The position numbers were made by a program, and so were the translations under genes. A DNA stretch of 64,000 nucleotides. Source: Methanolobus sp. GTDB taxonomy: Archaea; Halobacteriota; Methanosarcinia; Methanosarcinales; Methanosarcinaceae. The DNA lies in the NCBI RefSeq assembly GCF_030682845.1, contig NZ_JAUXNK010000031.1, positions 22,018 to 86,017 on the forward strand. Direction: 5' to 3'. Positions 3,051 to 17,407 of the stretch are shown here, piece by piece (position 1 is the stretch's first letter; each line of letters begins with the position of its first letter). A model generated the notes under the pieces. That model saw only the letters and a program-made list of their open reading frames with translations, was not told the DNA's origin and did not search any database.

Positions 3051-5711
3051 TCATTTTGCAATGATCGCCGAACTATTAGTCACAGGGTCTTTCTCCACAG
3101 CAAATACATGGTCCGCAGAATCTATCAGTGACTCATCATGCGATACTACAAGGATCTGACCCACACCGATGTCGCGCATCATGTCTATCAGTTTGATCAA
3201 CTGGTTAACATGCCCTTTATCCAGGAAAACTGTAGGTTCGTCCATGATCAGAGGAGGAAGTCCGGCCTGTTTTCCGGCTACGCCAAGCGAAAGCAGGCGA
3301 TATATAGCGCACCTTAGTACAAGGTTGAACAAAGCCCGCTCCCCACCGCTCAGGAGTCTGGGTTCAAGGGAAGTTCCGTCCTTCTCGAACACAGTAAGGT
3401 TGTAGTCCGCGTCAAGCCTTACATGGGAGTAAGCGTTATTAGTGTACATGAAAGTGAATATCTCATTAATGAAAGTGTCCAAGGCCCCGATATTGTTGGA
3501 GCGCAACTGAGATCTGATGCGCATATACATCGCCTCGAGCTCTTGCGCATCCGCATAGATAGCATTGAGATAATCCACCTTGTTATTGAGCTGGTCAAGA
3601 ACAAGTCTCAGGCTTTCGAAGCGCTTAAGCTCACTTTCAAGCATTCCCGCCTGCTTTGTGATCTCTTCCCGCTCCGCTTGCAGCCTGACGATCTCAGATT
3701 TTATGACTCCGAAGGCTTCATCATAGTCCCTGAACAGGGATTCAAGTCTAGATATATCAAAGCCGCCCACCTTGCCGCTTATCTCACGAAGGGACTCATT
3801 CTTTTCAGCAACCTGACCATCAAAAATAACGATCACCTCTCTGAAATTCGTGATCTTAGCTTCCATCTGTGCAATATCGGTTTTCATCCTGTCTGCTTCA
3901 ACGAGGTCCGTGCGAACCTTCCGGGCGGCCTCAAGGAGTTTCAGGCACGCAGAATGTTCTTTCTCAGCTACTTCCAGTTCCTGCTTCAATAGCCGGAGTT
4001 TGTCCTGTAATCCCCTTACAGACTCCTCTATAAGGGACCTCCGTGAAGAGAGTTCCTCTTTCTTCTTATCATGATCAAGAAGCAGGGATTGGTATTCCAG
4101 AGCCAGCTTTTCAAGACTACGTATGTTCTCTTCGGAGGACTTTACTTCCCTGACTGTGACCTCAATTTCATTTCTGTGAACCCTGGCCTCTCTTACGCGC
4201 CCCAGCTTAGAATCCAGAGCCTCCTGTTTTTTCTTCAATACAGCTAATTCTGCCTGGAGTTCCTTCGCTTTCTGGGAGTCCGAAGCTGTCGCCTCCTCAA
4301 TGCATGAACCCTTAAGATCCTGCATGCACGTGGGGCACTTCCCTTCGCTGAGGAGCTGAGCAGACTTTTTTATTCGCTCCTGTATTTCCGTAAACTTTGC
4401 CGAAAGCTCTTTTTCCTTGCCATGCAGGCTTTTTTGCTGGTCGGTCACAAGATCGAAGATCTCCTCGATGTTCTCCAGCTTTTCCAGCGTCAGTCCAAGA
4501 GGCTCAAGGTTTGAGATAACAGAAACCTTCTTTTCCTCAAGCTGTGCTATTTTGGTGCGCGATGCCTCAATATCTGACTGTATACCTGTAAGCTTTTCCT
4601 TGCTCTGGGAAACAGACTTTTCCAGCTCATGGACATGTTTTTGGTTTTCTGCCAGCGAGTCAGCAAAGGTCGTTTGTTCTTTTTCAAGTACTGCCTTGTT
4701 TTTGCTTATATTGCTTATCCTGTCCCTCAATGAGCGCTCACTGGTGTCTATTCCTGATATCGTCCTTTCTATGTCCGAATCATCAAGGTTGAATTCAGAA
4801 CAAACCTCCCGAATCCTCTTTCGTAGCTCCTCCTGACCGACTCTTGAGGAAGCGATACTCTTCTCCATGGACCCTATCTGGACATACGCCCGGTTCTTCT
4901 TCTCATCAAGTTCTTTTATCTGGGACTGGACAGAAACCTTTTTGTCTGCTAATTCCCTGAATTCGGCAATCTTTTTTGAAGTCTCGTCTTTCAATGACAG
5001 CGCACGGTCCTTCTTATCATTAAGAGAGGAGATCTCCCTTTCAAGATTCCCGGAGCGTGTGCGCAGTTCTGCAAGTTTTTCAACAGGCTTTGAGTCTTCT
5101 ATATGCCTGGCGGCTGCATCCACTTCCTTGATGCGGCGTTCCGTATCCTTCTGGTGGCGGCCAACACCTATGCGTGCACTTGACGCCCGCTCACGATACT
5201 CTTCCAGTTTCCCAAGCTGCAGGAGATCGTCTATCATCTTCTGCCTGTCCTTTGGCTTGGAGTTTATCAGCACATCGATTTCACCCTGCCTGATATAGAC
5301 GCAATTCCGGTAGGCCTCTTCATCCATGTTGAGCAGTGAACGTATAGCATCATATGTACGTGTAGGCTGGTCGAAAAGAATCTCAGAATCTCTTCTGAGA
5401 ATAGCACCCGTATTGGAAGCACGTCCCTTTTCAGGATCATTCCTGAAGAATTGCTCTACTGAATAATCATGGCCGTTCTGTTCGAAATCCAGCATTATGG
5501 AAGCTTTTGTAGCACCTTTTCGGATGATATCCGAAATGACAAAATCCTTATCAAGGGTCTTGCTTCCGAAAAGACAGGTAAAGCACGCCTCAAGCAAGCT
5601 GGATTTCCCACTCCCGTTGACTCCTGAGACTACGGTCACACCATCCTGGAAAGAGATGTCCAGCTGCTTATAGCTTCTTATGTTCTCTATCTGCAGTCTT
5701 TTTATTCTCAT
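3051..5711 (-). CDS. rad50: DNA double-strand break repair ATPase Rad50
   Basis: Rad50 forms a complex with the Mre11 nuclease that tethers and processes DNA double-strand ends. The 886 residues match the usual archaeal length. Walker A GVNGSGKSS is near residue 30, long coiled coils flank a zinc hook CPTC near residue 458, the ABC signature LLSGGERALFNL is near residue 783, and Walker B LIMDEPTVFLD near 820. The start overlaps the mre11 stop by 4 bp, so the genes are translationally coupled. No HerA or NurA gene is next to this pair here, unlike in many archaea. Confidence 0.97.
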   Translation of the reverse strand: MRIKRLQIENIRSYKQLDISFQDGVTVVSGVNGSGKSSLLEACFTCLFGSKTLDKDFVISDIIRKGATKASIMLDFEQNGHDYSVEQFFRNDPEKGRASNTGAILRRDSEILFDQPTRTYDAIRSLLNMDEEAYRNCVYIRQGEIDVLINSKPKDRQKMIDDLLQLGKLEEYRERASSARIGVGRHQKDTERRIKEVDAAARHIEDSKPVEKLAELRTRSGNLEREISSLNDKKDRALSLKDETSKKIAEFRELADKKVSVQSQIKELDEKKNRAYVQIGSMEKSIASSRVGQEELRKRIREVCSEFNLDDSDIERTISGIDTSERSLRDRISNISKNKAVLEKEQTTFADSLAENQKHVHELEKSVSQSKEKLTGIQSDIEASRTKIAQLEEKKVSVISNLEPLGLTLEKLENIEEIFDLVTDQQKSLHGKEKELSAKFTEIQERIKKSAQLLSEGKCPTCMQDLKGSCIEEATASDSQKAKELQAELAVLKKKQEALDSKLGRVREARVHRNEIEVTVREVKSSEENIRSLEKLALEYQSLLLDHDKKKEELSSRRSLIEESVRGLQDKLRLLKQELEVAEKEHSACLKLLEAARKVRTDLVEADRMKTDIAQMEAKITNFREVIVIFDGQVAEKNESLREISGKVGGFDISRLESLFRDYDEAFGVIKSEIVRLQAEREEITKQAGMLESELKRFESLRLVLDQLNNKVDYLNAIYADAQELEAMYMRIRSQLRSNNIGALDTFINEIFTFMYTNNAYSHVRLDADYNLTVFEKDGTSLEPRLLSGGERALFNLVLRCAIYRLLSLGVAGKQAGLPPLIMDEPTVFLDKGHVNQLIKLIDMMRDIGVGQILVVSHDESLIDSADHVFAVEKDPVTNSSAIIAK

Positions 5712-7300
5712 AAGTAGTCACCAAGGTTGTACTGCCGTGGTTTGGGAGCAGCTTTATGCTCCTTATGAGAAGGTGTTTCCGGTCCTTTTTCCTGAGCAAC
5801 GACCTCATGAGCCTTCTCTAAGGGAGGGGCTTCACCTTCAGAGAATATATACTGCCGGACATTTACATCGTGTTTCTGTTCAGCGTGACCTTCAGTTACC
5901 TCGGACATTTCAGTTGTTTCAGTTGATTCGGTTGATTCAATTGATTCGGGCACTTCGGTTAATTCCGTTACTTCATCTACAGCGGAAACATCTTCTTTTG
6001 CCGTAACACCCTGGTCAAAGTTCTGCTCAAAGTTATCTGCTGCAACAGCCTCAAACTTCTCATCCGTTGTGACCACTATAAACTCATGAGAAGTTTCATG
6101 AGAGACTCCCTGCAGGGAAGGTTCGACAGACTCGCCCTCAGGCAATGCCACAACTGCAGGAACCTCGACCCTGTTTGTGAAATCCATCCTGTCGAGCAAT
6201 TCACCAAGTCTGTCTTCGACTTCAGCGTCAACCCTGCTCTTTACGAGCACAGGGTCCCTGATTATCTCGTCGAGCATGATGCCACCCTGTGTAAGATTCA
6301 TCTTCCCCAGTTCCTCTTTAACCGCCTCATCGGGATCTGTAAAAGAAAAAGACATATATACGTCCGGGAAAATGTCACCGGCCCTGAGGTCCCTTATAGC
6401 AGGGACAAGGGCCTTGCGGGAAAACAGGAATTCCTCTATCTCACTGAACTTGATCTTTATCTCAGGATCTCCCGAGATATTCACAAATACTATCTTGTCC
6501 TCGACATCACGCTCTTTGATAGCAGAGAATATTTCCTCGTAAGCCTGTGAGCCTTTGCTGAGCTTGACAGGTATGAATACAAAATCCCTGGTAGGTATTA
6601 CCCTCTTGCTTATATCGACCCCATCATCGCCTGCAGTGACGATATTATAGGAGCGGGGCTCAAGTTCGGATGCACCGTTGCGCTCGGTGCTGCCACAATA
6701 GGTAACCCAGGTCTCTCCTACCCTGATTATTTCATGCTTGTGATTATCACCAAGGAGCACGGCATGCACATCAAAAGGAATGGAATGCAGGACTTCCTGC
6801 ACATCCCAATCACCAAAAGCAAAGGGTTTCATCATCTGATGCATTACAAGCAGATTATATTCTGCATCATCCTCATTATTGAAAACTGAATAATCGAACA
6901 GAGGAATCCGGGATTTGGGTACATGGTCAATCCCATATACAGCTACGCTGCCCAGCCTGTAAGGTGTGGCCCCAAGGCGTATGACAAGCCCCATGCTTTC
7001 ATAAAGGTCAAGCCACTGTGTGCTTTGCTTGCTCTCATGGTTACCCACAACTGCAAGCAATGGAACCTGAGCATCCCTGAGCCTTGAGAAAAGTTTCATC
7101 GTCTCCAGAATATCATCAAGAGTCGGATTCCTTGAGTCGAAAAGATCACCTGCATGTACAACAGCATCGGCTTTCATTGAAATGGCATCATCGATCACCT
7201 TTGCAAAAGCATCGAGAAAATCCTGCCTGCGTACTTCGCTGTGGTACTGCCGGTAACCTAAGTGTGTATCCCCTGTGTGGATTATCTTTGTTTCATCCAT
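5708..7300 (-). CDS. mre11: DNA double-strand break repair nuclease Mre11
   Basis: Manganese-dependent 3'-5' exonuclease and endonuclease acting with Rad50 in end resection. Phosphoesterase motifs are in order: GDTHLG near residue 10, HAGDLFDS near 48, GNHE near 85, HQMMKPF near 155 and GDNHKHE near 180. At 530 residues it is longer than most archaeal homologues. The extra part, roughly residues 360-520, is acidic and low-complexity, rich in Thr, Glu, Ser and Val, and ends RQYNLGDYL. A related RQYIFSEG lies upstream in the tail. The catalytic half looks intact. Divergent from the pilin cluster that starts at 7447. Confidence 0.96.
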   Translation of the reverse strand: MDETKIIHTGDTHLGYRQYHSEVRRQDFLDAFAKVIDDAISMKADAVVHAGDLFDSRNPTLDDILETMKLFSRLRDAQVPLLAVVGNHESKQSTQWLDLYESMGLVIRLGATPYRLGSVAVYGIDHVPKSRIPLFDYSVFNNEDDAEYNLLVMHQMMKPFAFGDWDVQEVLHSIPFDVHAVLLGDNHKHEIIRVGETWVTYCGSTERNGASELEPRSYNIVTAGDDGVDISKRVIPTRDFVFIPVKLSKGSQAYEEIFSAIKERDVEDKIVFVNISGDPEIKIKFSEIEEFLFSRKALVPAIRDLRAGDIFPDVYMSFSFTDPDEAVKEELGKMNLTQGGIMLDEIIRDPVLVKSRVDAEVEDRLGELLDRMDFTNRVEVPAVVALPEGESVEPSLQGVSHETSHEFIVVTTDEKFEAVAADNFEQNFDQGVTAKEDVSAVDEVTELTEVPESIESTESTETTEMSEVTEGHAEQKHDVNVRQYIFSEGEAPPLEKAHEVVAQEKGPETPSHKEHKAAPKPRQYNLGDYL

Positions 7301-7446
7301 CTTGGGATATGATACGCATTACCCGTTTTTAAGATTGCCTATTAAAGGCATTGTTGCTGTCATCAAAATGAGATACAGTCGCTCGAGGAGAATGTACAAA
7401 TAAGACCTGTAATATAATATTAGTTACTATAATACTAGAGGTATTT

Positions 7447-7917
7447 ATGGACAGTAAGGGACAGATGACTATCGACTATCTGATAAGCATTATAATATTT
7501 TTGCTTGCAATGGTCTTCGTGTTCAGTTATACATCCGGGATATTCACACCGTTCCAATCCAACTCAGACGAAGTCACATTGATAGCGGACAGAGTATCCA
7601 TAGCTATCGTTGAAAAGAGAATGAGCGCCGGGGATGAGGCTGTTCCTAATCTGGTCAACAAAACAAAGATTAATGATTTTTTTGCAGATCTTAATAATGA
7701 CACAAACTACCAGTCTATTATTGATTCCCTCGGGATGAACGGCAGCTATCTGCGGTATGACCTGAACGTCACTGCAGAGAACAGCAGTAGTATCATTTCT
7801 GCAGGAAAACCGATTCCTCCCCAGATCAACGTAGGGCAGACACGGAGGATAGTCCTGTGCAAAGATGAGAATTCAGAGAGGACAGAGATGGTAATTCTGT
7901 CATTCAGGGTGTGGTGA
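7447..7917 (+). CDS. Pilin-like protein, module 1 gene A (DUF7287-like)
   Basis: First gene of a six-gene pilin-like set. The 156-residue protein starts with a class III signal: SKGQMTIDYLI, with likely cleavage between G5 and Q6, followed by a hydrophobic stretch to about residue 29 that would form the pilin helix core. The conserved block FTPFQSNSDEVTLIADRV follows directly. The rest is a small extracytoplasmic domain with several N-glycosylation sequons (NKT, NDT, NGS, NVT). About half of its residues match its counterpart at 12200-12667. It resembles haloarchaeal proteins I know as DUF7287; that name is from memory. An AT-rich TATA-like stretch lies at about 7411-7421. Function unknown beyond pilin-type export. 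Confidence 0.82.
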   Translation: MDSKGQMTIDYLISIIIFLLAMVFVFSYTSGIFTPFQSNSDEVTLIADRVSIAIVEKRMSAGDEAVPNLVNKTKINDFFADLNNDTNYQSIIDSLGMNGSYLRYDLNVTAENSSSIISAGKPIPPQINVGQTRRIVLCKDENSERTEMVILSFRVW

Positions 7918-7918
7918 C

Positions 7919-8533
7919 ATGAGAAGAAATGTACCGCACAAACTTGAAAGAGGCGAACATGCTCAGATGCATACCCTTGAAGCGATCATTGCATCGCTCA
8001 TCATGGTCGCAATTATCATATTCACTGTGCAGGCAACTTCCCTTACCCCTCTCACATCCTCCACAGCTAATGCCCACATAGAGGCCCAACTCCAGGCAAT
8101 GGGGCAGGATATGCTCAATGCCCTTTCATATTCAGCTTATGGTCAGAACTCGAATCTGACAAATGATGTCCTGAAATGGGATGGTGAGCAGTATGTCTGG
8201 AACGGGACAACATACAGGACAGTTAGGAATCCAGGTTACGAGCTTCAGGACAGTTCACTTGCCCATACGCTCGAATTCATCGCAGTCAAAAGAGGGATTG
8301 CACATAATGTTCATTTCAGCTGGGTGGATGAAGAAGGCGTCACAATGTCCCGAAGATACATCTATAACGGGGATCCTTCGAATAACGCTGTGGTGATATC
8401 AAAGAGAGTGCATTTATCAGATTTTGACGTCGGTAACACAACTGAATTTGCGGCACGCAGCGGAATCCCGGATGCGGATCCGACAGATTTCTACAATATC
8501 GTGAATGTAAAAATGACGCTCTGGAGAATGTAG
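7919..8533 (+). CDS. Pilin-like protein, module 1 gene B (DUF7288-like)
   Basis: Second gene of module 1, starting 1 bp after gene A stops. In the 204-residue protein a short charged N-terminus precedes AQMHTLEAIIA and a hydrophobic segment at about residues 22-40, then the highly conserved TSLTPLTSSTANAHIEAQL. A likely prepilin-peptidase cut is between A15 and Q16, with Ala rather than Gly at the -1 position. The C-terminal domain is extracytoplasmic and ends TLWRM, as does its paralogue at 12670-13290. Similar proteins occur in haloarchaea (DUF7288 from memory). Confidence 0.82.
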   Translation: MRRNVPHKLERGEHAQMHTLEAIIASLIMVAIIIFTVQATSLTPLTSSTANAHIEAQLQAMGQDMLNALSYSAYGQNSNLTNDVLKWDGEQYVWNGTTYRTVRNPGYELQDSSLAHTLEFIAVKRGIAHNVHFSWVDEEGVTMSRRYIYNGDPSNNAVVISKRVHLSDFDVGNTTEFAARSGIPDADPTDFYNIVNVKMTLWRM

Positions 8534-8540
8534 TGATCGC

Positions 8541-9398
8541 ATGAGAAAATTAGATGATTCCGCTCAGTTGTTATTGATAGCAGGTTTTGCCATAGGAGTA
8601 GGCATAGTTGTAATTACAGTCATGCTAAGCAATGTGATATATGCCAGCAACATGGCATCGGAATCAAGCATTGATACTTCCCGCTACGATATTGCCAACG
8701 CGATCCAGACAACCACTGAAGCATATCAGGACGCTTACAGGTACTCCATATTGGATGAGGATAACATCACCCGTTATGAAGAATATATTGACTCCTACTC
8801 CAGGAAAGCCTCACAGAACTATGCAACAGCAGGCTTTACTTTCCACCTGCAAGACCATGGCTTCTCAGAACCTTACTTCACCCACAACGGGCTTGCAGAG
8901 GGGAAGGACAACTGGACCCTTGTGAGCAACGTAAACATGACTGAATCATTCTTTATTACGCCAAACACATCCACCATGGGAAATGAATCCAATCCTCTTG
9001 TAATCGAAGCCTTCAATCATAGCGGAAGTAGCCTATGGTCAATCGGAATGTACAATTCAAGCGGGAAGGTAAACATAACTGTAATAGACGGTTCATTCGC
9101 ACCTCGGTACAAACCAGATATAGGAGCTAATCCAGAAGTCAACATAACAGGTAATCGGATCAATAATGAAACCTTCGAGTTCAATTATTCTGCTTCCACA
9201 ACAGGCCAGGATTATTCAATAAATATCTACAACGGAAGCAATACCATTGGAATCTACACAATATCCGGCAATACTTCATCCGGTCAGCCCTTCATGCTTG
9301 CAAGATACGAAGTTGCGAACCCAACCCTGAGGATGGCTTCCAGCCAGATGAGTATTAACCGGTCGGTGCCAATTCCCCTTCCGGGGGGGATGTCATGA
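8541..9398 (+). CDS. Pilin-like protein, module 1 gene C (DUF7261-like)
   Basis: Third gene of module 1, 7 bp after gene B. The 285-residue protein starts MRKLDDSAQLLLIAGFAIG: a short charged head, A-Q at the possible processing site, and a hydrophobic helix to about residue 33. The region after VIYASNMASES is a large, sequon-rich surface domain (NMT, NTS, NHS, NSS, NIT). It overlaps gene D by 4 bp. Its paralogue is at 13313-14137 with the same N-terminal signature. Resembles DUF7261 of haloarchaea, from memory. Confidence 0.8.
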   Translation: MRKLDDSAQLLLIAGFAIGVGIVVITVMLSNVIYASNMASESSIDTSRYDIANAIQTTTEAYQDAYRYSILDEDNITRYEEYIDSYSRKASQNYATAGFTFHLQDHGFSEPYFTHNGLAEGKDNWTLVSNVNMTESFFITPNTSTMGNESNPLVIEAFNHSGSSLWSIGMYNSSGKVNITVIDGSFAPRYKPDIGANPEVNITGNRINNETFEFNYSASTTGQDYSINIYNGSNTIGIYTISGNTSSGQPFMLARYEVANPTLRMASSQMSINRSVPIPLPGGMS

Positions 9399-9868
9399 GA
9401 GATCTGGCAGGAGATGAGAATGCAGTATCTATCTCAATTGGGTTCATACTTACCTTCTCCATAACAGTTCTTGTGATGGTAATTGCTCTGACATCATTTT
9501 ATTCACTGATGGGACAGGCTGAGCAGACCGTGATGCGCGACGAGTTCGAAATACATGGAAGCGATATTGCGGTCCGTATAACATCTCTGGATACGACAGT
9601 TGGTATAGCAAAAGATGCAGGTTCCGATATTGGAAGGATCAGTTACAGACTATCTCTTCCTGACAAGATAGCAGGGAAGGAGTATTCCATCGAGTTCTCA
9701 AACAGTACAAATGAAATAACTTTCATGTCTGAGGAAAGAGCTGAGACAAGGGTCAAAGTACCCTATTCCACCGAAGATACCAATGTTACTCCAACTATTC
9801 TTTACAGTTCGAAAGGCGAATACCTGATGGTTTACAACCCGATCACCAATACAATAGATATATCCTGA
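9395..9868 (+). CDS. Pilin-like protein, module 1 gene D (DUF7266-like)
   Basis: Fourth gene of module 1, overlapping gene C by ATGA. The 157-residue protein has the archaeal pilin-type start DENAVSISIGFILTFSI with a hydrophobic segment at about residues 10-32. Then comes the conserved block AEQTVMRDEFEIHGSDIAVRI, which is almost the same in the paralogue at 14134-14631. The remainder is a small beta-rich domain. The AVSxxxG motif is typical of archaeal type IV pilin N-termini. Confidence 0.82.
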   Translation: MRDLAGDENAVSISIGFILTFSITVLVMVIALTSFYSLMGQAEQTVMRDEFEIHGSDIAVRITSLDTTVGIAKDAGSDIGRISYRLSLPDKIAGKEYSIEFSNSTNEITFMSEERAETRVKVPYSTEDTNVTPTILYSSKGEYLMVYNPITNTIDIS

Positions 9869-9880
9869 GAGTGAGTGCAC

Positions 9881-10669
9881 ATGGACAGCAGGAAAAAGGC
9901 ACGAAAAAATATTGTTGCATCCGATGATGCTGTTTCAGAAGTACTTGGTTTCAGTATCACTCTTGGAGTGATGGTTCTGTCGCTCGCTGTTATAGGCGTT
10001 GCAGGATATCCCATGCTTGAAAACATGCAGGAGAGAGGACATCTTCTGAACATAGAGCAAAGTTTCTCTGTGCTGCAGCCCAACATTAACAAAGTGGCAT
10101 TCGGAAAAGCACCCTCTCAGTCAGTAGAGCTTAAAATGTACGGGAGCAGCATCTCAGTTACAGGAACCAGTTACATGAATTTGAGCATGCAGGTATGGAA
10201 TAGTACCAATTCGAGTTATGATACCCCTTCCCTTGAAAGACAGATGAGGACGATAGAGAATCAATATAGTGAAAATACCGTAGCCTATGAGAACACAGGC
10301 ACCTGGGTCAGGTACCCGCAAGGAAGTTCCATAGCGATCTCAAAACCGGATTTCGCGTATCATGACAACGTATTACTTATTCCCATGGTAACCATTTCAG
10401 GCACAAAAAGCATTTCCGGTTCAGGGCTGACCCGTGTTGTTTCCCAGGGAGGGCAAATATCGGTTTCAGTATATGAAAATGTATCCAGGGTCGACATTAC
10501 CATTAAAAGCGATTATTACGAGGGCTGGGAAAGGTACCTGAATGAAACGCTGGGAATGGATATCAAGTACACAGATCCTGCAAACAGCACCATATCTGCA
10601 AGCCGGGATTATAATCCCGGCATAGATGTGCTTGTGACAGTATCTCCAATGAGTGTAACTATTGAGTAG
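9881..10669 (+). CDS. Pilin-like protein, module 1 gene E (DUF7289-like)
   Basis: Fifth gene of module 1, about 262 residues from an ATG at 9881; a GTG two codons earlier is also possible. The N-terminus reads ASDDAVSEVLGFSITLG, a pilin signature, and a hydrophobic segment ends near residue 48. Next comes LNIEQSFSVLQPNINKV and the motif GKAPSQSVELKMYGSSISVTG, shared with its counterpart at 14647-15417. Distantly similar to gene F in the same module, suggesting an older duplication inside the set. Several N-glycosylation sequons are present. Confidence 0.82.
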   Translation: MDSRKKARKNIVASDDAVSEVLGFSITLGVMVLSLAVIGVAGYPMLENMQERGHLLNIEQSFSVLQPNINKVAFGKAPSQSVELKMYGSSISVTGTSYMNLSMQVWNSTNSSYDTPSLERQMRTIENQYSENTVAYENTGTWVRYPQGSSIAISKPDFAYHDNVLLIPMVTISGTKSISGSGLTRVVSQGGQISVSVYENVSRVDITIKSDYYEGWERYLNETLGMDIKYTDPANSTISASRDYNPGIDVLVTVSPMSVTIE

Positions 10670-10680
10670 TAGGTGCGATT

Positions 10681-12120
10681 ATGGTCAAAAAATTTATTAT
10701 TTCTGAAAAAGCTGTGTCTGCTGTTGTAGGAGTGATGATAATCCTTGCACTCACTATTACGTCTACAAGCGTCATCCTTCTGTATTCAACCCCCACCATG
10801 AGAAATATGGGGGATATGGCCAACGCCCAGAGAGCTGAACAGGCATTTACGGTTTTTGACTCCAGGGTTAGCAAGGTGGCACTGGGAGAATCACCCAGCC
10901 AGACCACATCGTTCTCAATAATGGACGGTAGTGTCAGCGTCAATGGGGATGCAAGTGCCTATCAGAACAGCCAGATGGTAGTGGTGTGCACCCAGCTCAG
11001 CGGGGAATCATGGTATACTACTTTTAACAATAACAGGTTCAAATGGAACAGCTGGGAGCCTCATGTAGCCCAGCCAAACATGACTGTGTTCCGTTCACCT
11101 ATGGGAAGCATTACCTATACCCAGGGAGATCGCATCATCGGCTATGAAGGTGGCGGCGTATGGTCAAAATACCCCACCGGAAAGGCCGTCATGATATCCC
11201 CGCCGGAATTCCATTACAATGGAGAAACGCTCACCCTGCCCATAATGAAAATAGAAGGAAACGAGGTTTTCAGCGGAAGGACGGATGTTGCAGTGACCGT
11301 GAGCTCCGATAATATGCCTGTAGTACTCTATCCTGATCCAAGCAGTATAAAGAAAGTTAATCCGCTCAGCTCGGATAAAGTGCTCATCTACATAAAGAGC
11401 GAATTCTACACAGCCTGGGCCGATTATGCTAATTCCCTTACTTATGCCAGTGCAACAACAGATGACGCAAACCAGACTGCCATCGTGGAACTGGAGGTGA
11501 TGCCGGCAATGGGAAAAGATCAGCTTAAGCAGGTGTTCAAGATTGGTGCCCTTAACCAGACAAATCCTGCACCAATGTATAATTTCACGTTCAATCTGGA
11601 AGCAAAAGCAAGCCAAGGGCTTAATCCAAGCAATTATCAGATAACTGCTTCGTCCGGCACAAAGACCCTGACGTACACCCTTGCTAAAAAAGGTGGTGCA
11701 AACCAACTTGAGCTTGGACTGATCTATAAAGATACAGCCACAGGTGGAGGTACTGAAACATGGGTAGGAACAACAGTATTCTCTGTCAGTGGTTCAAAAG
11801 AAGACCAGTCTGCAAACGTTGACTTGCTGAGCACCTCTTTCAACATGAAATATGATTCAAATACAGGTGACTTTTCTTGGCCTGATTTGGATATAACAAA
11901 AAGTAACCCAAACAGCACCCAATCATTGCACACTGTATCTCAGCATTATATGAAACTTCTCACAATGGATGGTTCAGTAATATTCAATATCCAATCACCC
12001 GGGAAGTCAGATCCTGTGGACTATTCAGAATCAACACTGACACTCCTATATGATGGGGCGCCGGGAAGCATCACTTACCTGCATGTGAGCAGGAACGATC
12101 TTGCAGTTACACTCAGTTGA
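10681..12120 (+). CDS. Large pilin-like protein, module 1 gene F (DUF7289-like)
   Basis: Last and largest gene of module 1, preceded by TAGGTG as ribosome-binding site. The N-terminus of the 479-residue protein is SEKAVSAVVGVMIILAL with a hydrophobic helix to about residue 34. Conserved blocks include RAEQAFTVFDSRVSKVALG, AYEGGGVWSKYPTG-like and PPEFHYNGETLTLPIMK. The C-terminal half is a long surface domain. The protein is far larger than an ordinary pilin subunit, so a tip or minor pilin role is plausible but unproven. Its counterpart is at 15434-16903. A hairpin follows the stop codon. Confidence 0.8.
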   Translation: MVKKFIISEKAVSAVVGVMIILALTITSTSVILLYSTPTMRNMGDMANAQRAEQAFTVFDSRVSKVALGESPSQTTSFSIMDGSVSVNGDASAYQNSQMVVVCTQLSGESWYTTFNNNRFKWNSWEPHVAQPNMTVFRSPMGSITYTQGDRIIGYEGGGVWSKYPTGKAVMISPPEFHYNGETLTLPIMKIEGNEVFSGRTDVAVTVSSDNMPVVLYPDPSSIKKVNPLSSDKVLIYIKSEFYTAWADYANSLTYASATTDDANQTAIVELEVMPAMGKDQLKQVFKIGALNQTNPAPMYNFTFNLEAKASQGLNPSNYQITASSGTKTLTYTLAKKGGANQLELGLIYKDTATGGGTETWVGTTVFSVSGSKEDQSANVDLLSTSFNMKYDSNTGDFSWPDLDITKSNPNSTQSLHTVSQHYMKLLTMDGSVIFNIQSPGKSDPVDYSESTLTLLYDGAPGSITYLHVSRNDLAVTLS

Positions 12121-12122
12121 TC

Positions 12123-12166
12123 CTATGTAAGGGGAGTTATCCTCTTACATAGAGTAATTATCTTTT
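12123..12166 (+). terminator. Hairpin terminator between the two pilin modules
   Basis: CTATGTAAG (12123-12131) pairs with CTTACATAG (12144-12152), with additional inner pairing GGA/TCC. A T-rich run follows at about 12162. It lies directly after the module 1 stop and before a TATA-like stretch (about 12165-12190) that would serve module 2, so the two modules are probably separate transcripts. Confidence 0.65.
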
Positions 12167-12199
12167 TATATAATAAAGTATATATTTATAGAGAGGATT

Positions 12200-12667
12200 A
12201 TGGATAACAGTGGCCAGATGCATATGGATTACCTGATAGGGATTGCAATATTCCTTGTCAGTATCACTTTTGTTTTCTCCTACACAGCCGGGTTATTCAC
12301 CCCGTTCCAGTCAAACTCAGATGAAGTCACCCTTATAGCCGACAGGGTCGCAACAAACATCGTTGAGCAAAATATGAGTGTAGGCAGACCCGGGGCAACT
12401 AATCTTCTGAATGACACAAAAGTAAATGACTTTTTTAATTACACTGACAGCAATTACCAAAATACTCTTGACATGCTGGGGATGAATGGAACTTACCTTC
12501 GGTATAATCTCAATATTACGCTTGAAGATAATACAGGAATAACAAAACTAACAGGAGAGTCCCTGCCCTCTCAGGGAAACATAGGACAGACCATAAGAGT
12601 TGTGCAGCTCAGAAATGAAACAACAGGGAACATTTCCCAGGCAATTTTAGCCGTGAGAGTGTGGTAA
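12200..12667 (+). CDS. Pilin-like protein, module 2 gene A' (DUF7287-like)
   Basis: First gene of the second six-gene set. The 155-residue protein begins MDNSGQMHMDYLIGIAIF with likely cleavage after G5 and a hydrophobic stretch to about residue 29. It shares an almost unchanged FTPFQSNSDEVTLIADRV block with gene A at 7447-7917, while the C-terminal domain has diverged, leaving about half of residues identical overall. It has its own AT-rich promoter region and a GAGAGG ribosome-binding site. It ends VRVW, as gene A ends FRVW. Confidence 0.82.
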   Translation: MDNSGQMHMDYLIGIAIFLVSITFVFSYTAGLFTPFQSNSDEVTLIADRVATNIVEQNMSVGRPGATNLLNDTKVNDFFNYTDSNYQNTLDMLGMNGTYLRYNLNITLEDNTGITKLTGESLPSQGNIGQTIRVVQLRNETTGNISQAILAVRVW

Positions 12668-12669
12668 GC

Positions 12670-13290
12670 ATGGAGAAAAAGAAAGGACAGACATCTCTAA
12701 AGTCGAGTTCATCCGCACAGTTACACACACTTGAAGCCTTAATGGCACTGTTACTTGTTATTGGCGTGATCATTTATACTGTCCAGGCAACATCCCTGAC
12801 CCCGCTCACATCCTCAACTGCAAATGCGCATATTGAGTCCCAGTTGCAGATACTCGGACAGGACATGCTTAGTACACTTGACTACGCCGAATACGGGCAG
12901 GATTCGCCCCTTAAAACAGACATATTGAGCTGGAATGGTAAGTACTACACATGGGACTCAAACCAATATAGATCGACTTCCGGAGATAATCTTAGTAACA
13001 GTTCAACCGCAAATATTCTGAAATCTGTTGCAATTGGGAGAGGAATAGCACATAATGTGGAGTTTGCATGGATAGAAGAAGGTGGCACCATGCGAACTAT
13101 GCCATATATATACAACGGTGAGCCCTCGGATAACGCTGTAGTAATTACCAAAAGAGTATTGCTGTCAGACTCTGATTTTCCTGATAAGGACCCAACCTCC
13201 TTCAGAAAAAGTAGCGGTATTCTGGATGCCGATCAAAGTACGGATTTCTATAACCTTATCGATGTGAAACTGACTCTATGGCGCATGTAA
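12670..13290 (+). CDS. Pilin-like protein, module 2 gene B' (DUF7288-like)
   Basis: Second gene of module 2, about 206 residues from ATG 12670, 2 bp after gene A' ends; an in-frame GTG at 12661 would overlap it. The signature SAQLHTLEALMALLLVIG is followed by TSLTPLTSSTANAHIESQL, almost identical to gene B. The conserved middle block FAWIEEGGTMRTMPYIYNGEPS and the ending TLWRM also match. Interestingly the N-terminus also carries KKGQTSL, a second possible class III-like site ahead of the hydrophobic segment. Confidence 0.8.
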   Translation: MEKKKGQTSLKSSSSAQLHTLEALMALLLVIGVIIYTVQATSLTPLTSSTANAHIESQLQILGQDMLSTLDYAEYGQDSPLKTDILSWNGKYYTWDSNQYRSTSGDNLSNSSTANILKSVAIGRGIAHNVEFAWIEEGGTMRTMPYIYNGEPSDNAVVITKRVLLSDSDFPDKDPTSFRKSSGILDADQSTDFYNLIDVKLTLWRM

Positions 13291-13312
13291 AACAAAATGG
13301 CAAGTGGTTGAT

Positions 13313-14137
13313 ATGAGAAAATGGAACGACTCTGCACAGATGATATTGATTGCCGGTTTTGCCATAGGGATAGGCATCGTAGTCCTTACAGTTATGCTGA
13401 ATAACATAATCTATGCAAGTAATACTGCTTCAGAGGCAAATATCGAGACTAATGTTTTTGATTTTTCCAATACAGTAAGAGTGACAACTCAGGCTTACGA
13501 AAAGGCCTATTGCAATGGTTCTATTAACAACGCATACATCTCCAACTATAGCCAGCAAATGGCAAAGAGCTATGCACTCTCAGGGTTCATATACACCCTG
13601 GATAATGATCCCTTGCAAGAACCTTATCTAACAGAGAATGGACTCAGCAGCGGAAATCCTGAATGGGTTGTTGTCGATAGGATTAACCAGACAGATCACT
13701 TTGAGTTGGTGATAAACACTTCTTCACTGGGAAACGAATCAAGCTGCTTTGCAATAGAAGCATTTAACCAGTCTGGTATGTTCTGGTCAGTCAGGGTCTT
13801 CAACTCCAGCGGCGCATTTTATGCTAATGTTACAAATAGTACAGACATACTGAGAACTGAGAACATTGGTGCCGGCAGCCCATCATTGAATATATATAAT
13901 AATACGCCTTTTGATTTTCATTTTAACACCCTGACAGCAGGTGAACAATACCGGATCAGATATGTAAATGGTAACCAGGCAAGTGGTACTTTCGCAATAT
14001 CAGGCAACCTCACTAACGGTCAGCCTTTTGAAATTAGAAGATACCATGTGCTCAATACCACGATGTCACTTAACAAGAACGGACATCTGGAAATGAATGT
14101 GACGATACCTGTTACATTGCCACGGGGGCATATATGA
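13313..14137 (+). CDS. Pilin-like protein, module 2 gene C' (DUF7261-like)
   Basis: Third gene of module 2, about 274 residues from ATG 13313 (a GTG at 13304 is the alternative). It starts MRKWNDSAQMILIAGFAIG, nearly the same as gene C, with a hydrophobic helix to about residue 33 and then IIYASNTASEAN. The large surface domain carries many sequons (NGS, NYS, NQT, NTS, NSS, NVT). It overlaps gene D' by 4 bp, the same arrangement as C/D in module 1. Confidence 0.8.
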   Translation: MRKWNDSAQMILIAGFAIGIGIVVLTVMLNNIIYASNTASEANIETNVFDFSNTVRVTTQAYEKAYCNGSINNAYISNYSQQMAKSYALSGFIYTLDNDPLQEPYLTENGLSSGNPEWVVVDRINQTDHFELVINTSSLGNESSCFAIEAFNQSGMFWSVRVFNSSGAFYANVTNSTDILRTENIGAGSPSLNIYNNTPFDFHFNTLTAGEQYRIRYVNGNQASGTFAISGNLTNGQPFEIRRYHVLNTTMSLNKNGHLEMNVTIPVTLPRGHI

Positions 14138-14631
14138 ACAGAAAAATTGCCACCATGAAATTTACCCGTGACGAGAGGGCAGTATCCCTTTCTGTGGGAT
14201 TCATGCTTACACTTGCTATAACACTCATAACCACAATGGTTCTGATCAGTTCCTTTTATACCATGATGGACAGGGCAGAGCATACTGTAATGCGTGATGA
14301 GTTCGAGATACATGGTAATGACATCTCGCTACAGATATCAAATATCGACACTGCTATCCAGATTACCAACAATGCCGGGGGAAGAGTGGAAAGCATCACT
14401 TATCAGCTGATACTCCCGGACACTATAGCAAACAAACAGTATTCTGTGGAGTTCTCCGGCCATCCTGGAACCAAAGAGATCATCTTTGAATCCGAAGGAA
14501 GAGAGGAGACTAAAGTGAAAGTGGCATATACAACTAATGCTGTCAACGTCACACCCACAAAACTGTATAGCGGCTCAAATGACTTCGTTTTACATTACAA
14601 TGCCACCTCAAATATGCTGGAGATACATTGA
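14134..14631 (+). CDS. Pilin-like protein, module 2 gene D' (DUF7266-like)
   Basis: Fourth gene of module 2, overlapping gene C' by ATGA. The 165-residue protein reads TRDERAVSLSVGFMLTLAI, then a hydrophobic helix, then AEHTVMRDEFEIHGNDISLQI, matching gene D. It has a few more N-terminal residues than D. The extracytoplasmic part contains the shared pattern KQYSVEFSG...EIIFESEGREETKVKV. Confidence 0.82.
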   Translation: MNRKIATMKFTRDERAVSLSVGFMLTLAITLITTMVLISSFYTMMDRAEHTVMRDEFEIHGNDISLQISNIDTAIQITNNAGGRVESITYQLILPDTIANKQYSVEFSGHPGTKEIIFESEGREETKVKVAYTTNAVNVTPTKLYSGSNDFVLHYNATSNMLEIH

Positions 14632-14646
14632 ACCGGAGAGGAGCTA

Positions 14647-15417
14647 ATGAAAAAGATATTTACAAGGTCTGAAGATGCAGTTTCCGAAATGGTGGACTTT
14701 AGCATCATCTTGAGCATAATGCTCCTTGCCACCGGGATAATAGTAGTTGCAGGAGCCCCTCTTCTGGAGAACACTCAGAATATGCAACATACGGAAAACA
14801 TCAGGCAGGGTTTCGAGGTACTTGCCCTTAACCTGAACAAAGTGGTACAGGGAAAGGCTCCATCCCAATCCGTGGAAATGAAGATGTACGGTGGGTCCCT
14901 GTCTGTCACCGGGGAAAGCTATATGGATATTGACTTGAAGGTTTGGAACTCATCTGCAAATGCTTTTGAAACTCAGTCTCCCGGAGGTAAGATGAGGATG
15001 GTAGAGAATAATTTCCAGGATACAACTATTTCTTATGAGAACACCGGCGTGTGGACAAAGTATAGTACTGGTCAGTCACTGATGGTTTCTGAACCACGTT
15101 TTACCTATGCGAATAATGTCCTGGTCATACCTATTGCTAAGATCGGTGGTAGCACTTCTATATCTGGTTCCGGACTTGTCAGAGTTACTGCTGACAGCGG
15201 AAGAAAGACTGTAGAGGCTTATGAAAATGTATCCCAAGTGAATATAACAGTAACAAGCGAATACTTCGAAGCATGGGGAAGATACCTGAACGAAAGTCTT
15301 CTAATGCCCATAGTTATGGTGGATGCTGATAATAAAACTATAAATCTTAGCAAGGATTATCTTACTAATATTGATGTGTATGTAGCCAGTTCACCCATGA
15401 CAGTTACAATCAATTAA
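14647..15417 (+). CDS. Pilin-like protein, module 2 gene E' (DUF7289-like)
   Basis: Fifth gene of module 2, preceded by GGAGAGGAG. The 256-residue N-terminus is RSEDAVSEMVDFSIILSI, with a hydrophobic helix to about residue 36. Shared blocks with gene E are LNLNKVVQGKAPSQSVEMK, MYGGSLSVTGESYM, YENTGVWTKYSTG and the ending MTVTIN. The usual Gly of the AVSxxxG motif is Asp here (AVSEMVD), a small departure from the pilin signature. Confidence 0.82.
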   Translation: MKKIFTRSEDAVSEMVDFSIILSIMLLATGIIVVAGAPLLENTQNMQHTENIRQGFEVLALNLNKVVQGKAPSQSVEMKMYGGSLSVTGESYMDIDLKVWNSSANAFETQSPGGKMRMVENNFQDTTISYENTGVWTKYSTGQSLMVSEPRFTYANNVLVIPIAKIGGSTSISGSGLVRVTADSGRKTVEAYENVSQVNITVTSEYFEAWGRYLNESLLMPIVMVDADNKTINLSKDYLTNIDVYVASSPMTVTIN

Positions 15418-15433
15418 AAAGGGAGTGGGAACT

Positions 15434-16903
15434 TTGAAAACTATGTTGAAAAATGAAACTGCGGTTTCATCCGTGATCGGAATCTCAATAATACTTCTAA
15501 TTAGCCTGTTATCAATTGGCCTGATGCTTCTTTATACTGCGCCTTTGATAAGTGAAACACAGGATATTGCTAAAGCCCAGAAAGTAGAACAAGCGTTTAC
15601 GGTCTTTGACTCAAGGACAAGTAAATCATCACTTGGAGAGTCTCCTCTCCAGGCAACCGCACTTTCCCTTATGGGAGAAAACATTATCGTGCATGGAAGG
15701 ATGGATTCATACAATGAGAGCAGAATCATGATAATAGCTCTGTCTTCTAATTCCTCATGGTATGATAGTTTTTATCCCAACCGAGGAGCATGGGGTGCAT
15801 GGGAAAAATATGAGAATCAAGAGCATGATTTTGCAGGATTCAACGCCTCAATGGGAAAAGTAAGATACTATTCCGGAAACAGAGTTATCGCTTATGAGGG
15901 AGGAGGAGTCTGGTCCAGATATCCTGAAGGAGGAACAATAATGGTATCACCACCCGAGTTCCACTATAATGGCGAAACGTTAACTCTCCCAATTATGAAA
16001 GTGGTTGGTAACGACTCTATTGGAGGAAGTTCGAATGTGAACATCAATGTTAAATCTTCCAACACGCCTGTGGTCCTTTATCCAAACACCACGAGGAATA
16101 CCAATTTCACCAACCCCCTTAACTGTGATAAAATTCTAATCTATATTAACAGTGAATTTTATGACGGATGGGCCGAGTACGCCGAAACACTTACTTCCAC
16201 TCATGCGATTCTGGATCACAAAAATAAGACAGCAATTATTGAAATGGATACAAAGCCTCCCATGGGAACATTTCCATTGAAACATTCGTTCAAGATAGGC
16301 AAACTGAACCAATCAAACCCCGAACCCATCTACAACTTCTCTTTCTCTTTTGAGGCTGTTACAGGTGATGCATCCAACTTCAATTCTGTGGAAACATACG
16401 TTACTGCTACTGCAGGAACAAAGACCCTTAATTACGAGATAAAGAAAACCACTATAGAGTTCATAGAATATTCAGACTCTGCTGTTGGCACGAATAGGGA
16501 GAGATGGGTCAGTACTGGTAGCCCTAACAGTACTTTTGTAATCTATGATGATCCCACTAACAAGAAGAAAGCAAACAGTACTTTCGACCTTGTCAGTGAT
16601 ACTTATCCACTGAAATATCATAACAAGTACGGGGCAGAATTCTCATGGGATGAGGTCAGCCCAACAACAATGACTCCAAACCTGACCATTGCAAATGGTG
16701 ATGTGCAGTCATTAAATAATATCACCCAGCACTACATGAAACTTTTATCACAGGAGGGCGTCATGACTTGTACATGGGAGCAAAAAAAGAATAAAAAGAT
16801 CAATGAGGGCGCTTCAACCTATACTTTGATCTATGACGGAGGGGAGGGATACCTCACCTACCTGCACATCACAAGCAACGAGCTTGAGGTAACCCTTGAT
16901 TGA
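15434..16903 (+). CDS. Large pilin-like protein, module 2 gene F' (DUF7289-like)
   Basis: Last gene of module 2, about 489 residues. I prefer a TTG start at 15434 because GGGAGTGGG lies 5 bp upstream; GTG 15425 sits inside that site and ATG 15443 is further away. The N-terminus NETAVSSVIGISIILLI is a pilin signature. QKVEQAFTVFDSRTSKSSLG, VIAYEGGGVWSRYPEGG and PPEFHYNGETLTLPIMK match gene F. The C-terminal domain carries dense Asn-X-Ser/Thr sequons. Followed by a hairpin. Confidence 0.8.
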   Translation: MKTMLKNETAVSSVIGISIILLISLLSIGLMLLYTAPLISETQDIAKAQKVEQAFTVFDSRTSKSSLGESPLQATALSLMGENIIVHGRMDSYNESRIMIIALSSNSSWYDSFYPNRGAWGAWEKYENQEHDFAGFNASMGKVRYYSGNRVIAYEGGGVWSRYPEGGTIMVSPPEFHYNGETLTLPIMKVVGNDSIGGSSNVNINVKSSNTPVVLYPNTTRNTNFTNPLNCDKILIYINSEFYDGWAEYAETLTSTHAILDHKNKTAIIEMDTKPPMGTFPLKHSFKIGKLNQSNPEPIYNFSFSFEAVTGDASNFNSVETYVTATAGTKTLNYEIKKTTIEFIEYSDSAVGTNRERWVSTGSPNSTFVIYDDPTNKKKANSTFDLVSDTYPLKYHNKYGAEFSWDEVSPTTMTPNLTIANGDVQSLNNITQHYMKLLSQEGVMTCTWEQKKNKKINEGASTYTLIYDGGEGYLTYLHITSNELEVTLD

Positions 16904-16975: not shown

Positions 16976-17407
16976 ATGAAGAAAGCAATCATTGAAACCG
17001 AGAAAGGCAACATTGTACTGGAATTGTTCGAGAAGGATGCACCAAAGACCGTAGAGAACTTTGAGAAACTGATAAGCAAAGGATTCTATGACGGGCTCAG
17101 TTTCCACAGGGTCTTGCCCAACTTCGTGATTCAGGGAGGATGCCCTAAGGGCAATGGGACAGGAGGACCGGGTTACAGCATCAAGTGCGAAACAAAAGGC
17201 AATCCACGCAAGCACGGCAAGGGTGCGCTCTCAATGGCACACGCCGGCAAGGACACCGGCGGCAGCCAGTTCTTCATCACTCACTCCCCACAGCCACACC
17301 TTGACGGCATACACACCGTCTTTGGCCAGGTCATCGAAGGCATGGATGTCGTGAACAAGATTAAGCCAAAAGACGTGATGAAGAAAGTCACTGTAGTTGA
17401 AGAATAA
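16976..17407 (+). CDS. Cyclophilin-type peptidyl-prolyl cis-trans isomerase
   Basis: Cytoplasmic PPIase that speeds proline isomerisation during protein folding. The 143 residues cover the compact cyclophilin core: [13 protein letters not shown] near residue 35, [33 protein letters not shown] near 90 and HTVFGQV near 107. The catalytic Arg and the QFFIT strand are present. No signal peptide. The ATG at 16976 has AAAGGTGA upstream, which rules out the longer frame open from 16946. Single gene with a hairpin on each side. Confidence 0.95.

What the first reader, a model, noticed from the sequence alone, without database searches (positions are those of the whole stretch)
7447..16903. Tandem copy of a six-gene secreted pilin-like module without visible assembly machinery
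Two sets of six small proteins follow each other in identical order (A to F). Each set has the same overlaps (C/D by ATGA) and the same conserved N-terminal blocks. Three subunits carry AQ- or GQ-type processing sites and three carry AVSxxxG sites. Identity between copies is only about half, so this is an old duplication, not an assembly error. Two separate promoters and a hairpin suggest two versions made under different conditions. No ATPase, platform protein or peptidase is present, so assembly must rely on genes elsewhere. Individual proteins look like known haloarchaeal DUFs, but a paired six-subunit set is not something I know described.
Basis: partly seen in the sequence, partly recalled or inferred. 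Interest (0 to 1): 0.72.

Follow-up and report, generated by a model that had tools for sequence, protein, structure and literature searches.

The report
Swappable pilus-subunit sets in Methanolobus
This methanogen carries, side by side, two half-identical versions of a six-gene set for predicted surface-pilus subunits; its relatives carry other mixtures of such sets at the same spot, so the cells likely change pilus parts while keeping one shared, distantly encoded assembly motor.

Summary
Window 7447-16903 contains two intact A-F modules in the same order, 44-57% identical gene by gene, with the same ATGA overlap at C/D. The genes belong to Pfam families of unknown function (DUF7287, 7288, 7261-like, 7266, 7289, 7289+7308) with pilin-type N-termini; F1 is modelled with a 59-residue N-terminal helix and a lectin-like C-terminal domain. 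The duplication is ancient: copies 1 and 2 form separate, fully supported clades across Methanolobus. The window is one state of a variable pilin island between mre11/rad50 and a peptidyl-prolyl isomerase gene: 26 of 27 Methanolobus genomes carry two or more modules, drawn from three types. Module trees conflict strongly with motor and border-gene trees, so module alleles were likely replaced or exchanged. The missing machinery is most likely the ATPase/TadC pair on contig C9: it is the best own match for 13 of 14 ATPases lying near such modules elsewhere, and it tracks the module family across 60 genomes. Unexpectedly, in four related genera the operon begins with a large archaellum ArlCDE-like gene; in Methanolobus that gene remains at the apparent empty original site. 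Function, expression and partners are untested.

The parts
7447..7917 (+). A1: pilin-like subunit, DUF7287, GQ-type N-terminus
   Evidence: Pfam PF23958 115.5 bits, cut-off 27
7919..8533 (+). B1: pilin-like subunit, DUF7288, AQ-type
   Evidence: PF23959 159.7 bits; AF2 pLDDT 82.7, N-terminal helix 13-40
8541..9398 (+). C1: pilin-like subunit, DUF7261-like N-terminus, AQ-type
   Evidence: PF23922 21.5 bits, below its cut-off of 27
9395..9868 (+). D1: pilin-like subunit, DUF7266, AVSxxxG
   Evidence: PF23928 42.8 bits; ATGA overlap with C1
9875..10669 (+). E1: pilin-like subunit, DUF7289, AVSxxxG
   Evidence: PF23960 96.8 bits
10681..12120 (+). F1: large modular pilin-like subunit, DUF7289 + DUF7308, AVSxxxG, modelled lectin-like C-terminal domain
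12123..12152 (.). hairpin between the two modules, possible terminator of module 1
   Evidence: 13-nt arms, fold z -3.5
12163..12174 (+). TATA-like box of module 2
   Evidence: TTTTTATATAAT; strong TATA-like boxes precede A in 19 of 20 second copies examined
7410..7419 (+). weaker AT-rich, TATA-like stretch before module 1
   Evidence: sequence; by inspection it does not match the strong pattern used
12200..12667 (+). A2: DUF7287
   Evidence: 127.4 bits
12670..13290 (+). B2: DUF7288
   Evidence: 149 bits
13313..14137 (+). C2: DUF7261-like
   Evidence: 19.4 bits, below cut-off; 43.6% identical to C1
14134..14631 (+). D2: DUF7266
   Evidence: 43.9 bits; ATGA overlap with C2
14647..15417 (+). E2: paralog of E1; AVSxxxD instead of AVSxxxG
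   Evidence: 52.3% identical to E1; copy-2 clade in the E tree; not scanned against Pfam
15425..16903 (+). F2: paralog of F1, modular pilin type
   Evidence: 45.8% identical to F1; copy-2 clade in the F tree; not scanned against Pfam
5708..7300 (-). mre11 (with rad50 at 3051-5711): left border of the island; gene names read from sequence
   Evidence: homologs found in the island stretches of 25 of 27 Methanolobus genomes
16979..17407 (+). peptidyl-prolyl isomerase gene: right border of the island; name read from sequence
   Evidence: homologs in the stretches of 13 of 27 genomes, and of G016 and G026 in longer stretches

Best explanation
The locus holds two divergent, intact copies of one six-gene pilin-like module that likely supply alternative sets of type IV pilus subunits to one shared assembly motor encoded elsewhere, predicted to be the ATPase/TadC pair on contig C9. 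Shown: two complete modules; a duplication older than the Methanolobus radiation; a variable island with three module types beside fixed border genes; strong phylogenetic conflict of the modules with both motor and border genes; one full-strength C9-type TadC in each of 27 Methanolobus genomes whatever their number of modules; co-occurrence of module family and motor. Inferred: a prepilin peptidase (one gene, contig C82) trims the GQ/AQ/AVS leaders, and the six proteins join through their N-terminal helices. They would form either the tip and initiating complex of a PilA-type pilus or a mixed filament, with F (pilin body plus lectin-like domain) as the adhesive subunit. Type III modules, which lack F, come with a giant vWA/Ig-domain protein that could replace it. 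An ArlCDE-like cytosolic protein (contig C4), which opens the operon in four related genera, likely helps position or regulate this motor. Replacement of modules would change what the cell binds, or what recognises it, without changing the motor.
Confidence: 0.68

Rival explanations
1. Each module builds its own complete filament, so the cell makes two separate heteropolymeric pili, possibly with separate motors chosen among its several ATPases, rather than alternative parts for one pilus.
For: Each module has its own promoter-like region in most genomes. Besides the C9, archaellum and PIN-type ones, the own genome has four further T2SSE-type ATPases to choose from. Both modules are kept together in 19 of 27 genomes.
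Against: One C9-type TadC per Methanolobus genome whatever the number of modules; Tad107 and ATP105 do not track the module; no classical PilA-type pilin was recognised inside the module, while one lies at the old site on C4.
Confidence: 0.3
2. The modules form a short pseudopilus for secretion or DNA uptake, not surface pili.
For: Six pilin-like proteins of graded size without an evident major pilin recall type II secretion pseudopilins (recalled); no surface structure has been shown.
Against: F carries a modelled lectin-like domain and type III modules come with giant vWA/Ig-like proteins, which point to adhesion.
Confidence: 0.12
3. Tree conflict comes from several ancient module copies lost differentially, not from exchange between species (a rival to that part of the explanation only).
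For: G014 carries two type II modules; few pairs show modules more similar than the rest of the genome.
Against: Conflict is massive in both copies (AU p at most 3e-4, log-likelihood differences 1009-2930) while motor and border genes differ far less (63-167); F of copy 1 in G003 and G022 falls with copy-2 F, a sign of recombination; G022 copy 1 is 75% identical to G003 copy 1 although their motor genes are 73% and border genes 56% identical.
Confidence: 0.25
4. The second module is a relic kept without function.
For: 8 of 27 genomes lack it; F2 is broken into two frames in G008.
Against: All six genes are intact in the window and a complete second A-F set was recovered in most carriers; order is kept and a strong TATA-like box precedes 19 of 20 second copies.
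Confidence: 0.05

Closest known systems
PilB4-type pilin sets of euryarchaeal clade 2 type IV pili (Makarova et al. 2016, PMC4858521)
   Same: A set of several distinct pilins beside an ATPase and TadC, as in the Halobaculum plasmid; the paper proposes that ATPase/TadC modules and pilin sets evolve apart and that one minor pilin is duplication-prone (sections 11-12 read).
   Different: Here the set is away from its motor, doubled in tandem, replaceable by other module types at one island, and linked in sister genera to an ArlCDE-like gene, which the passages that I saw mention only for archaella.
Myxococcus xanthus minor pilin/PilY1 clusters 1-3 (PMC7541494, passages read)
   Same: Several complete alternative sets of minor pilins plus an adhesin serve a single pilus machine; two of the three are each sufficient.
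   Different: Bacterial families FimU/PilV/PilW/PilX/PilY1; no Pfam match to them here.
Archaellum with ArlCDE (PMC8978795 and PMC9087265, passages read)
   Same: Four module-linked homologs carry Arch_fla_DE (96-98 bits), three of them a FlaC-like match below cut-off.
   Different: The genes lie apart from the arl operon, are 446-1056 aa long, and stand outside the archaellar FlaD/E group (UFBoot 100), beside pilin modules.
VARTIG hypervariable islands of Thermococcales (PMC8416519, abstract and outline read)
   Same: Variable surface-protein islands with recombination between genes of different species.
   Different: Centred on an Ig-domain protein of another family, not on pilin modules as far as the abstract tells.
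PilB-C cross-use in Haloferax volcanii (PMC6491452, passages read)
   Different: Different paralogs and pilins.

Membership tests
PilB4-type pilin set of euryarchaeal clade 2 type IV pili | Pilin-type N-terminus: short charged leader, GQ/AQ or AVS site, hydrophobic helix | tested here: met
   Sequence of all 12 proteins; modelled long helix in F1, shorter helix in B1. Cleavage itself not tested.
PilB4-type pilin set of euryarchaeal clade 2 type IV pili | Same protein families as a set next to a haloarchaeal PilB/PilC-type pair | tested here: met
   A, B, D, E, F over Pfam cut-offs; same families in order in the Halobaculum plasmid. C is below the DUF7261 cut-off. That this plasmid set is of the PilB4 type is my inference.
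PilB4-type pilin set of euryarchaeal clade 2 type IV pili | ATPase and TadC encoded in cis | tested here: not met
   None in the window's island; the best partner is on C9.
PilB4-type pilin set of euryarchaeal clade 2 type IV pili | Partner ATPase belongs to clade 2 | tested here: inconclusive
   ATP104 has PilB3_N over cut-off (39.4 against 27) and PilB3_C below it (22.2 against 27); no ATPase clade tree was built.
PilB4-type pilin set of euryarchaeal clade 2 type IV pili | Own major pilin arCOG03926 and minor pilin arCOG02911 | not tested
   arCOG assignments were not available; that F or E equals arCOG02911 is a guess from size and duplication.
Archaellum | arlF, G, H, I, J operon next to archaellins | tested here: not met
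   Absent from the island; the archaellum operon is on C79 (gene names read from sequence and order).
Archaellum cytosolic ring protein ArlCDE (the C4 gene only) | Arch_fla_DE domain | tested here: met
   Four module-linked homologs 96-98 bits, cut-off 21; the C4 protein scores 490 bits against a profile that included it and is listed with PF04659.
Archaellum cytosolic ring protein ArlCDE (the C4 gene only) | Encoded in the archaellum operon and linked to CheF | tested here: not met
   The C4 locus shows no arl genes; CheF family not found in the own genome.
Minor pilin/PilY1 priming cluster (Myxococcus type) | FimU/PilV/PilW/PilX/PilY1 families | tested here: not met
   No such Pfam match for the ten proteins scanned; it may still work like one.

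The most novel reading that the evidence does not exclude
A type IV pilus with an archaellum-type switch ring: one motor (C9 ATPase/TadC) plus an ArlCDE-like cytosolic ring (C4) drives whichever pilin cassette sits in a hypervariable island, so Methanolobus exchanges the whole subunit-and-adhesin set of a regulated, perhaps rotating or retracting, pilus, likely under pressure from viruses or changing attachment partners.
Probability: 0.22. Interest if true: 0.8.

Novelty: new variant of a known kind. Interest (0 to 1): 0.58.

Why it matters
It turns twelve hypothetical proteins into a testable system: one motor, interchangeable pilin cassettes, and alternative adhesive subunits (lectin-like F or giant vWA/Ig protein). 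The apparent relocation from a defined old site, with the cassette missing there but its neighbours left in place, and the strong conflict between cassette and motor trees give concrete material on modular pilus evolution in archaea. The ArlCDE-like gene at the head of a pilin operon bears on an open question in archaellum evolution: where ArlCDE was recruited from (PMC9087265 passages call its source unknown) and whether it serves archaella alone. [quoted passage not shown] this gene makes such a link testable, although CheF was not found in this genome.
Full report
Observation. The window (G000:C38:22018-86017) carries two sets of six genes at 7447-12120 and 12200-16903, all intact and in the same order and strand. 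Gene-by-gene identity is 44-57%. Pfam places A in DUF7287, B in DUF7288, D in DUF7266, E in DUF7289 and F in DUF7289+DUF7308, all over the curated cut-offs; C matches DUF7261 only below cut-off (E2 and F2 were not among the ten proteins scanned, but are paralogs). The hairpin is real. A strong TATA-like box lies 70-15 nt before A in 33 of 43 Methanolobus modules examined (copy 1: 14 of 23, copy 2: 19 of 20) but before 1 of 217 B-F genes, consistent with one transcript per module; by inspection the window's first copy is among those without the strong box.

Age and spread. The genome belongs with Methanolobus (named relatives). A whole-genome search for DUF7287 in 60 genomes (the window's own among them) found it in 47. 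I fetched the regions and mapped the genes. Of 27 Methanolobus genomes including the window (G014 is only about 70% complete and several are fragmented), 26 carry module I at least in part, 19 module II and 15 a third, five-gene type III (long A of about 320 aa, B, C, D, E, no F). Twelve have II without III (the window among them), 8 have III without II, 7 have both; only G007 has a single module (III). In all 15 genomes with type III a giant protein of one family is at the island or on a contig piece of it; one scanned whole has vWA and Ig-like domains over cut-off and PA14 below it, and a cut-off piece of another has vWA. Homologs of mre11 lie in the fetched stretches of 25 of 27 genomes and of the peptidyl-prolyl isomerase in 13 of 27, plus G016 and G026. 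The near relatives G026 and G016 (97% and 92% identical motor) have I+III+giant and no II.

Phylogeny. In a concatenated A-F tree of 57 modules (24 first, 20 second copies, 13 outgroup), first copies and second copies form two clades, both UFBoot 100; the single-copy outgroup is held together at 77. A-E trees separate the copies one by one, 96-100; the F tree does so for all 18 second copies, while first-copy F of G003 and G022 falls with copy 2. So the duplication predates the genus radiation, with some recombination since. The G067 tandem pair is an independent duplication.

Exchange. Module trees conflict with the motor tree and the border-gene tree by 1009-2930 log-likelihood units (AU p at most 3e-4). 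Motor and border trees also reject each other formally (p 2e-6 and 0.005), but by only 63-167 units, and they share 9 well-supported splits with 2 in conflict. Rank correlations of pairwise identity: motor and border 0.90, motor and copy 1 0.67, motor and copy 2 0.18, copy 1 and copy 2 0.35. G005 and G022 are 91-92% identical in motor and border genes but 59% in copy 1, whereas G022 copy 1 is 75% identical to that of G003, whose motor and border genes are 73% and 56% identical to those of G022. Few pairs (1 of 190, 2 of 91) have modules more alike than both references, so the data fit replacement among old divergent alleles or by unsampled donors better than recent swaps between sampled species. 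Differential loss of ancient copies is not excluded.

The missing motor. The own genome has seven T2SSE matches: by gene context and sequence an archaellum ATPase, a PIN-domain ATPase and five others. In a Halobaculum plasmid the order is ATPase, TadC, A, B, C, D, E, with F convergent, and other phylum loci look alike. Among 41 such loci (L120-L160) an ATPase is in the stretch in 14; ATP104 of contig C9 is the best own match in 13, while L142, beside a type III-like module, narrowly prefers ATP107 (458 to 453 bits). TadC104 orthologs (500 bits or more) occur in 45 of 47 DUF7287-positive and 1 of 13 negative genomes. In the family outside the genus it is 5 of 5 against 0 of 5. Each of the 27 Methanolobus genomes has one match of 1150 bits or more. 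A Tad107 match of over 540 bits occurs in module-less G027 and G036, and none at E 1e-120 in module-bearing G028, G029 and G031; ATP105 is found in 19 of 27 Methanolobus genomes and otherwise only in G058. ATPases 103, 106, 108 and 109 were not profiled. One prepilin peptidase gene lies on C82.

The old site and an archaellum relative. In G028-G031 the A-F operon is directly preceded by a 698-1056 aa gene ending in an Arch_fla_DE domain (96-98 bits, cut-off 21), with a FlaC-like stretch below cut-off in three, and followed by a convergent small membrane protein (in G028 after a second F). On contig C4 of the window's genome the homolog (922 aa) is followed by the homologous membrane protein with no module between. 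Seven proteins of that C4 stretch match G030 in the same order: by name read from sequence, an AI-2E-type membrane protein, thrS, acylphosphatase, ArlCDE-like, the membrane protein, a PilA-like pilin and a XerC-like protein. In G030 the module sits between the ArlCDE-like gene and the membrane protein. A few other genes of the two stretches differ. So C4 is the apparent empty original site, from which the module would have moved to the mre11 island. In G128 a type III module and a giant protein lie between the same two neighbours; in G033 only a 46-bit remnant with two stops remains beside the module. The ArlCDE-like gene scores 190 bits or more in 24 of 27 Methanolobus genomes (not in G003 and G018; in pieces in G014), in 4 of 5 other module-bearing family members and in 0 of 5 module-less ones. 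It is separate from the archaellar FlaD/E, which lies in the arl operon. In a tree of 27 rows the archaellar group stands apart with UFBoot 100; branching among the module-linked proteins is unresolved and the root unknown. CheF was not found.

Mechanism. The most economical reading is a Myxococcus-like arrangement, in which several complete subunit sets serve one machine (PMC7541494, passages read). It is also in line with the reported use of different pilin sets by PilB3-C3 in Haloferax (PMC6491452, passages read). Whether the sets form a tip complex or the filament itself is open.

Verdict. A confirmed and better-understood observation; a new variant of euryarchaeal type IV pili with cassette-like pilin sets, and a surprising association with an ArlCDE-like protein that deserves a bench test.

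Noticed in passing
L197:10050-13599 (G000:C4): Apparent empty original site of the module: ArlCDE-like gene followed by the convergent membrane protein that flanks the module in other genera.
   Followed up: yes
L205:4289-6943 (G031): A second, 884-aa ArlCDE-like gene in a Methanosalsum genome, away from the pilin module, with a 421-aa FlaD/E relative nearby.
   Followed up: partly
L213:5212-12254 (G045): A FlaD/E relative within 4 kb of the C9-type ATPase ortholog; in the tree it stands next to the pilin-linked proteins, outside the archaellar group (UFBoot 92 for its join).
   Followed up: partly
L105:9031-10035 (G000:C80): A protein with an archaeal pilin-like N-terminus on what looks like a phosphate-binding protein, on the contig of ATPase 105, which also holds phage-like genes (read from sequence only).
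   Followed up: no
G031:C1:486752-488832: The C9-type TadC ortholog of this Methanosalsum genome is split into two matches, with a stop.
   Followed up: no
L058:15863-17381 (G008): F of the second module is broken into two open frames.
   Followed up: no
L070:3436-4314 (G016): A 292-aa protein with a signal-like start and an SdrD-like stretch (recalled likeness) between the giant protein and the type III module.
   Followed up: no
L104:13589-16093 (G000:C9): An 834-aa PKD/Ig-domain protein close to the C9 motor genes.
   Followed up: no
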